From Lichina pygmaea (lineage: Eukaryota; Ascomycota; Lichinomycetes; Lichinales; Lichinaceae), in NCBI GenBank assembly GCA_963422465.1, contig OY730174.1, forward strand, positions 2,046,001 through 2,110,000: a stretch of DNA of 64,000 nucleotides, given 5' to 3'. This document shows positions 23,301 to 24,449 of this stretch, one piece after another (the stretch's first letter is position 1; each line of letters opens with the position of its first letter). The position numbers and the translations under genes are program-made. The notes under the pieces were generated by a model. That model searched no databases, was not told where the DNA came from, and worked only from the letters and a program-made list of their open reading frames with translations.

Positions 23301-23992
23301 ACCAGCAGGATAACTGGGTGGAACTGCTACCAATAGCACAGTTTGTGTACAACAACCAGCAACACAGCATGACAGAGACAACACTGTTCTTTGCGAACTA
23401 CGGAAGAAACCCCTGATAGCAGGCAACAGCAGGAGGCAATGTTGTCAATGTTGATAAACTTGCTGCTATGCACAAGATGATGAAAACAACAATCAACCGT
23501 GCCCAGAACACCACCACCCACTGATTACACAACAAAAAGTTGAAGAGACCAACCCTGGAAAGAAGGGATAAGGTCTACCTATCAACAAAAAACCTGCGCT
23601 CAAAGCAACCAAGCAAAAAGCTGGACCACGTACAAATCAGACTATTCAAAATCAAGAAGCACACTGGGAAGATCAACTACCAACTGAGACTACCACGAAA
23701 AGCAAGGATACACTGAGTATTCCATGTCTTGCTGCTCAAACTAGCACCCAGCAACGCAGAGATTGAAACAGAATGGAACTTCAAGGATGACAAAGAAGAG
23801 ATTGAAACAGAATGGAACTTCAAGGATGACAAAGAAGAGTACAATGTTGAAAGGATTCTGGATAGTCAGAGAAACAGACAGAAAACTGAGTACCTGGTGA
23901 AGTGGTTAGGTTATGATGAAGAGGAGAATTTGTGGGAACCAACCAAGAACTTCAGCCCTGCGATGAACCAGAAGCTGGTGGATTACTACTGA
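20302..23992 (+). pseudogene. A2 linker and pol region: PR-RT-RNase H-IN-chromodomain
   Basis: After B4, A2 continues with its His/Cys-rich linker (20302-20520, CEDNHCKKHLLQK). Then come protease (20703-20918, MINSGVTGNFMSE), RT (about 21290-21916, PIYTLSAKELEALRDYL and TAYIDNVLVYTN), RNase H (22049-22460, ETDASDQALGSCLCQ and YSDHKNLAYF), integrase (about 22697-23416, HRHPGQDKTLEKI, CEQCAKNKPSRHK and TAYHPQTDRQTERTNQ) and chromodomain (about 23837-23992, YNVERIL and YLVKWLGYDEEENLWEP). It is one of the better preserved pol regions here but still broken. Confidence 0.85.
23759..23836 (+). repeat. 39-bp tandem duplication before the A2 chromodomain
   Basis: Two identical 39-bp units encode IETEWNFKDDKEE twice just ahead of the chromodomain YNVERIL. 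The length is a multiple of three. Chr-B shows nothing similar at this place. Confidence 0.9.
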
Positions 23993-24449
23993 GCAAACCC
24001 GCAGTGACCAGGTCTGACAGTGACAACAGCTTGAGAGAAGCCAAAGTCTCTGAGGAGAAGATGTCCTCAAAGGACAGCGGAGCAGCAGTCTGACTGGCCT
24101 CCCGTTCGCGAATAACACAGAGAGCCTTCTGCTCCTGAGCATCAAGAGACTCTTGATCCTTGATGGCTGACAGCTTATGACAGATGGCATCAGCCTCTTT
24201 CTGAGAGAGATGACCCAGCTGCCAGTGGAGGTGGATCTGCCAGGGAAGCAACTTTGACAATTGGTCATCAGTCTCTCGCAGCTGAGCCTCAAGCTGCTCA
24301 CACTCAAGTTCCATCTTCTTCCATTCTGATTCTGAGAGATGAAGGTTGCAGCAACAACTCTTCTCAACACACTGACAACAAAAAGATAATGCAGAGCTCA
24401 CAACACACTTGGCGTGGTCACAACAACAAGCACCACATGTGATTTTCAA
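23952..24449 (-). CDS. Antisense ORF of A2, 165 codons
   Basis: Uninterrupted minus-strand frame that starts about 135 bases inside the 3' LTR and overlaps the last codons of pol. The amino end reads MKITCGACCCDHAKC, i.e. C-x2-C-x3-H-x2-C, the same spacing as CDFCVLNHKPC in Chr-B. Then FCCQCVEKSCCC, a coiled-coil-like stretch (ESEWKKMELECEQLEAQLRE) and a hydrophilic tail. The shared architecture (two Cys clusters, then a coil) in two chromovirus families, always antisense and always between pol and LTR, argues for a real gene. From memory only, such short Cys-cluster/coil proteins recur as hypothetical proteins in fungal genomes. Confidence 0.65.
   Translation of the reverse strand: MKITCGACCCDHAKCVVSSALSFCCQCVEKSCCCNLHLSESEWKKMELECEQLEAQLRETDDQLSKLLPWQIHLHWQLGHLSQKEADAICHKLSAIKDQESLDAQEQKALCVIREREASQTAAPLSFEDIFSSETLASLKLLSLSDLVTAGLLSSNPPASGSSQG

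What the first reader, a model, noticed from the sequence alone, without database searches (positions are those of the whole stretch)
23952..24449. Antisense Cys/His plus coiled-coil ORF shared by two chromovirus families
Every Chr-A or Chr-B copy that keeps its 3' part (A2, B2, B3, B4, B5, B6) has a minus-sense frame between pol and the 3' LTR. In A2 it is 165 codons, uninterrupted. The first metal-like motif has identical spacing in both families, C-x2-C-x3-H-x2-C (CGACCCDHAKC in A2; CDFCVLNHKPC in B6), followed by a second Cys cluster and a heptad-like coil. Sequence outside the Cys/His positions is quite different between families. Chr-C lacks it. Such an antisense gene could act as a regulator or antagonist of the element; from memory, similar short proteins recur as fungal hypothetical proteins.
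Basis: partly seen in the sequence, partly recalled or inferred. Interest (0 to 1): 0.8.

Follow-up and report, generated by a model that had tools for sequence, protein, structure and literature searches.

The report
Retrotransposon antisense gene, zinc-cluster-type protein
Several families of fungal jumping genes each carry, on the opposite strand near their right-hand end, a small gene kept by natural selection whose protein looks like a fungal transcription factor, possibly one that controls the jumping gene's own switches.

Summary
The frame is real. The window copy is one decayed copy of a gene found in at least four chromovirus subfamilies (A, A', B, B') of this 32.5-Mb genome, in hundreds of copies. 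Between subfamilies the frame is under purifying selection: dN/dS 0.24-0.27 (A vs A') and 0.16-0.17 (B vs B') in four tested pairs, against 0.8-1.0 in matched neutral simulations (0 of 1000 as low, each pair). It runs tail-to-tail into pol and overlaps its 3' end.

The His is not conserved; extra Cys in the window copy are decayed Arg codons. A long predicted coiled coil follows. Foldseek hits of the A model are Zn2Cys6 DNA-binding domains, none significant alone; Pfam Zn_clus stays just below its cut-off.

Each subfamily's LTR U3 holds a tandem array before the sense TATA box, dyad-symmetric clearly in A and A', suggestively in B and B'. B and B' also have an antisense TATA box. I propose a self-encoded regulator of the LTR (inferred, untested). 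Antisense genes in fungal Gypsy elements are known (Boty brtn); the zinc-cluster-type assignment and LTR arrays seem new.

The parts
23952..24524 (-). Antisense gene, A subfamily copy A2: ATG 24522-24524, in-frame TGA at codon 3 (24516-24518), stop TGA 23952-23954. Broken at its start.
24348..24437 (-). Six-Cys array (residues C5, C8, C15, C24, C27, C34 of the frame given), Zn2Cys6 spacing
   Evidence: spacing compared
24084..24332 (-). Long helix, predicted coiled coil (mapped from the AF2 model of copy L094)
23840..23992 (+). 3' end of pol with chromodomain; stop 23990-23992 in this copy; overlaps the antisense gene tail-to-tail by 41 nt here
   Evidence: overlaps in other copies
24586..24964 (+). 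3' LTR of A2 (start read by eye after the polypurine tract 24570-24583), cut by a LINE-like insertion near 24965
24660..24803 (+). Tandem array, 35-bp units with dyad CTTGTCC-n3-GGACAAG, upstream of TATAAAG at 24853-24859
53783..54271 (-). Antisense gene, B copy, with in-frame stops
54345..54351 (-). Antisense TATA box at the inner edge of the B LTR
54446..54678 (+). Tandem array of the B LTR (42- and 51-bp units), upstream of TATATA at 54725-54730
36892..37377 (-). Antisense gene, B copy, with in-frame stops
19155..19652 (-). Antisense gene, B copy, with in-frame stops
11562..12032 (+). Antisense gene, B copy in a minus-strand element, with in-frame stops
9252..9749 (-). Antisense gene, B' subfamily copy, with in-frame stops
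9940..10206 (+). Tandem array of the B' LTR with GTGAGC / GCTCAC half-sites

Best explanation
The antisense frame is a genuine accessory gene of several chromovirus subfamilies. It encodes a small protein (166-190 aa from ATG) with a Zn(II)2Cys6-type array, a long coiled coil and a C-terminus with acidic and hydrophobic residues. Shown: the frame, its conserved place, purifying selection, the Cys spacing, the predicted helix, tandem arrays in the U3 of all four subfamilies. Inferred: the protein dimerises through the coil, binds half-sites in its own family's U3 array and regulates LTR transcription; its own transcript would start near the inner edge of the 3' LTR (a TATA box supports this in B and B', not in A or A'). 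I lean slightly to activator over repressor; nothing here decides it.
For: Selection. Same place and tail-to-tail overlap with pol in A, A' and B. Zn2Cys6 spacing in 45 of 52 recovered proteins of 140 aa or more, against 2 of 10600 shuffles. Foldseek, A model: 24 of 24 hits are Zn2Cys6 domains (23 by description, 1cld as recalled), best E 0.085, prob 0.94; B model: 9 of 14, plus two CBF3 chains that I recall as the Zn2Cys6 subunit. The single PDB sequence hit of the A profile is Leu3, E 0.63. U3 dyads. Antisense TATA: 30 of 30 B, 4 of 4 B'.
Against: No zinc, DNA-binding or expression data. Pfam Zn_clus never reaches its cut-off (best 20.0 of 21 bits); the three B proteins scanned did not hit it at E 0.1 and hit zf-PHD-like weakly instead. 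No Foldseek hit is significant alone and models are of middling confidence (pTM 0.36). A-B homology is moderate (hhalign probability 64). In B and B' single array units are no more dyadic than many shuffles (136 and 504 of 2000). Pol windows reach up to 12 dyads. No antisense TATA in A (0 of 12) or A' (0 of 30). Only one family without the gene, in one copy, served as control.
Confidence: 0.55

Rival explanations
1. The protein is a DNA-binding-type accessory factor for another step, such as nuclear entry or choice of integration site, and the LTR arrays are ordinary enhancers bound by host factors.
For: Selection shows function, not which. The review PMC7264820 (section 7 read) discusses nuclear roles for plant antisense proteins.
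Against: Arrays upstream of TATA occur in all four subfamilies with the gene and not in the Chr-C LTRs, which fits a promoter role, weakly.
Confidence: 0.25
2. The product is a repressor or copy-number control, limiting the element rather than driving it.
For: Same evidence as the best explanation; the sign of regulation is open.
Against: None direct; the acidic and hydrophobic C-terminus (seen) hints at activation, by eye only.
Confidence: 0.22
3. The antisense RNA, not the protein, matters (for example double-stranded RNA silencing).
For: Convergent transcription over pol could make double-stranded RNA; the review discusses this.
Against: Codon-level selection in two independent comparisons. 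An RNA role in addition is not excluded.
Confidence: 0.04
4. Chance frame with Cys created by mutation.
For: Surplus Cys of the window copy do come from decay: most changes among stop-free copies are transitions at CpG-type sites (A 80 of 98, A' 283 of 337, B 158 of 216).
Against: The six array Cys stand in the least decayed copies and in outside relatives; selection.
Confidence: 0.02

Closest known systems
[quoted passage not shown] 2011, Virology 417:248; seen only through citing papers)
   Same: Additional antisense gene in a fungal Gypsy-type element, between pol and 3' LTR according to the review PMC7264820 (section 5).
   Different: BRTN sequence and the paper are not held, so homology is open; the citing passages seen mention no zinc cluster and no LTR arrays.
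Plant antisense aORF-3R genes (Grande gene23, RIRE2, Retand, PvRetro13)
   Same: Antisense, between pol and 3' LTR, conserved in most copies; nuclear location reported for the Grande protein (PMC7264820, sections 5 and 7).
   Different: The review states no clear database similarity for aORF-3R proteins, with an SMC domain and a transposase-28 domain noted for two; no Zn2Cys6 array.
Fungal Zn(II)2Cys6 regulators (Gal4, Leu3, Put3, Hap1, Ppr1, Pho7)
   Same: Six-Cys spacing, following coiled coil, best structure hits.
   Different: Much smaller, no regulatory middle domain, encoded by a retrotransposon; below the Pfam cut-off.
HTLV-1 HBZ (recalled; comparison of working only)
   Same: Antisense protein with a coiled-coil DNA-binding design that acts on its own LTR; the review notes the HTLV antisense promoter in the 3' LTR.
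   Different: A bZIP of an unrelated retrovirus; no homology claimed.

Membership tests
Zn(II)2Cys6 binuclear cluster proteins | Spacing C-x2-C-x6-C-x5to16-C-x2-C-x5to8-C (pattern set by me, from recall) | tested here: met
   45 of 52 proteins of 140 aa or more; of the 7 others three start after the first half, three lost one Cys, one (P0165) has another spacing
Zn(II)2Cys6 binuclear cluster proteins | Pfam PF00172 gathering score (21 bits) | tested here: not met
   Best 20.0 bits (P0007), 18.7 (P0116), 16.6 and lower in A and A' copies; no hit in three B copies. I therefore call it Zn2Cys6-type, not a proven member.
Zn(II)2Cys6 binuclear cluster proteins | Fold of the cluster | tested here: inconclusive
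Zn(II)2Cys6 binuclear cluster proteins | Two zinc ions bound; binds DNA | not testable with these tools
   needs purified protein
Antisense aORF-3R genes of LTR retrotransposons | Antisense frame between pol and 3' LTR | tested here: met
Antisense aORF-3R genes of LTR retrotransposons | Conserved in many copies, under constraint | tested here: met
brtn of Boty-like elements | Sequence homology to BRTN | not testable with these tools
   paper and sequence not held

The most novel reading that the evidence does not exclude
Fungal chromoviruses carry their own dimeric zinc-cluster transcription factor on the antisense strand, with its binding-site arrays in the LTR promoter (bidirectional in B and B'). 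Factor and half-sites have diversified together (GGACGAG in A and A', TCGAGAC in B, GTGAGC in B'), giving each lineage a private feedback circuit.
Probability: 0.36. Interest if true: 0.82.

Novelty: new variant of a known kind. Interest (0 to 1): 0.63.

Why it matters
Antisense genes of LTR retrotransposons have been described since 1997 (Grande, as cited in PMC7264820) without a settled function, and that 2020 review reports no clear database similarity for their proteins. Here the protein resembles the best understood class of fungal regulators, and candidate target sites lie in the same element, so the question becomes directly testable. If right, retrotransposons have captured a cellular-type transcription factor to run their own promoter, and a group of unnamed small hypothetical proteins would be explained as transposon genes.

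Tried and rejected

Rows dropped before counts: of 30 A' loci, 26 entered the dN/dS sets (L024, L034, L037 with stops; L042 by an offset of my cut); of 12 B stretches fetched, L080 gave no frame under my motif filter; the older A copies L001-L012 entered only.

Full report
WHAT IS THERE. The minus-strand frame 23952-24449 is open for 165 codons. It belongs to a longer gene: its ATG lies at 24522-24524 and codon 3 is TGA in this copy. The gene lies between pol and the 3' LTR (start about 24586, after a polypurine tract; read by eye) and converges on pol. Here pol stops at 23990-23992, a 41-nt overlap. In A copy L010 the overlap is 164 nt, in A' copy L036 146 nt, in B copy L061 59 nt (coordinates). 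The window holds five B-type copies, each with stops, one of them of subfamily B'. The gene-bearing pol of A' is 42% identical to B over 407 positions and 34% to Chr-C over 397.

COPIES. In this genome (32.5 Mb, 8 contigs) the searches score at most 150 places each. A: 150 matches, 106 without a stop in the matched stretch (my count of the listing). A': 61 matches of 85% identity or more, 53 stop-free (my count). B: 150 matches to a 64-aa piece. B': 150 matches, 8 stop-free (my count). From ATG, better-kept copies encode 190 aa (A), 176 (A') and 166 (B, B'). Among stop-free copies most differences are transitions at CpG-type sites (A 80 of 98, A' 283 of 337, B 158 of 216). Such decay turns Arg codons into Cys, which accounts for surplus Cys in the window copy.

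IT IS CODING. A vs A' (8 x 26 copies, 208 pairs): median dN/dS 0.27, transversions only 0.40, mean differences at codon positions 1, 2, 3 of 44, 28 and 74. Outside the pol overlap the ratio is 0.21 (32 pairs with better-kept A copies) and 0.23 (36 pairs with older A copies), inside it 0.46 and 0.44; pol in the same 36 older pairs gives 0.13. By transversions only these are 0.32, 0.44, 0.66, 0.67 and 0.19. The gene is constrained, less tightly than pol. In a null that moves the observed changes to random sites of the same base and CpG context, the mean ratio is 0.98 and 0.97 and 0 of 1000 simulations reach the observed 0.24 and 0.27 (two pairs). B vs B' (14 x 4 copies, 56 pairs): median 0.17, transversions 0.28, positions 35, 29 and 78; nulls 0.81 and 0.82, 0 of 1000 reach 0.155 and 0.165 (two pairs). 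Searches used stop-free copies, which may lower the ratios a little. Within families the ratios are 0.36 (A), 0.77 (A') and 0.43 (B).

WHAT THE PROTEIN IS. The array is C-x2-C-x6-C-x8-C-x2-C-x6-C in A and A', with a longer middle (9 to 12) in B-type proteins. Profile searches reached 173 proteins at E 0.01 and 186 at E 0.001, 120 listed each. Many are from this or near-identical genomes; outside relatives such as P0101, P0116, P0120, P0187, P0188, P0190, P0192 and P0195-P0198 are 36-54% identical to B copy L083. One relative, P0148, is named from Watsoniomyces obsoletus; the others carry no organism. 45 of 52 recovered proteins of 140 aa or more fit the spacing. AF2 models (mean pLDDT 73 for B, 76 for A, pTM 0.36 both) show a small N-terminal unit and one long helix. 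Foldseek: 24 of 24 hits of the A model are Zn2Cys6 domains (one, 1cld, as recalled), best E 0.085; for the B model 9 of 14, plus two CBF3 chains. The A profile's only PDB sequence hit is Leu3, E 0.63, with the six Cys aligned. Pfam Zn_clus reaches 20.0 of the 21 bits needed at best and is absent from three B copies. A and B profiles align over array and coil, probability 64, E 7e-5. I call it Zn2Cys6-type; formal membership is not met.

THE LTR. Upstream of the sense TATA box each subfamily's U3 has a tandem array: 35-bp units in A, 47 or 69 bp in A', 42 bp (and 51) in B, about 50 bp in B'. Dyads (7-nt arms, spacer 0-15) average 3.1 per U3 (12 A), 2.8 (30 A'), 14.4 (30 B) and 11.0 (4 B'), with at least one in 83%, 87%, 100% and 100%; 432 pol windows of 300 nt average 0.39 (20% have one or more, maximum 12), and the two Chr-C LTRs have none. 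Against dinucleotide shuffles of whole U3s, four B copies gave 0 of 300; A copies 300 (no dyad), 2, 38 and 5 of 300; A' copies 0, 20, 26 and 20 of 300. Repetition inflates such counts. For single units, 8 (A), 31 (A'), 136 (B) and 504 (B') of 2000 shuffles do as well; six unrelated arrays of the window gave 188 to 500 of 500. So arrays are certain, their dyad symmetry clear in A and A' and only suggestive in B and B'; the A and A' LTRs are themselves related, so these are not independent. An antisense TATA box sits at U3 position 30-31 in 30 of 30 B loci (shuffled rate 0.9%) and in 0 of 12 A and 0 of 30 A' loci, and at 27 in 4 of 4 B' loci with a looser pattern. The dyad idea arose from looking at the sequence, so it is a hypothesis made on the same data.

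MECHANISM. Most likely, a transcript from the inner edge of the 3' LTR makes a dimeric DNA-binding-type protein that acts on the U3 arrays of its own family. Gene, selection, Cys spacing and arrays are shown. Zinc and DNA binding, dimerisation, target and sign are inferred.

KNOWN. Antisense additional genes are described for plant elements and for Boty in Botrytis and Sclerotinia (review PMC7264820: passages, and sections 5 and 7). brtn also appears in passages of PMC8365987, PMC4227169 and PMC5987419; the original paper is not held. PMC2864245 (passages) mentions an additional frame of unknown function in a figure legend. Homology to BRTN is open, so novelty is claimed only for the zinc-cluster-type assignment, its breadth and the link to LTR arrays.

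Noticed in passing
25068-27800(+), 33032-35863(+), 47878-49605(-), 55403-57964(+), 60031-61443(-): Long related frames of LINE-like elements (reverse-transcriptase motifs recognised by eye, no search made); the first, with homology from about 24965, cuts the 3' LTR of copy A2.
   Followed up: no
A, A' and B copies, L013-L095: Decay among copies is dominated by transitions at CpG-type sites (80 of 98, 283 of 337, 158 of 216 differences).
   Followed up: partly
U3 of L001-L012: U3 length in A copies varies in steps of about 35 (159, 195, 230, 265, 300), that is, by number of array units.
   Followed up: partly
2092-2228: A'-type LTR array (69-bp unit, two copies) on the minus strand.
   Followed up: no
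4131-4210: Further B'-type array with GTGAGC / GCTCAC half-sites.
   Followed up: no
23758-23839: 39-bp tandem duplication inside the pol of copy A2, in phase (13 codons).
   Followed up: no
38581-38847 and 43622-43888: Likely 267-bp LTR pair of the Chr-C element (95% identical), without a tandem array.
   Followed up: partly
671-1834(-): Gag-like frames, one with a CCHC knuckle (CYNCQKVGHLAANC), recognised by eye.
   Followed up: no
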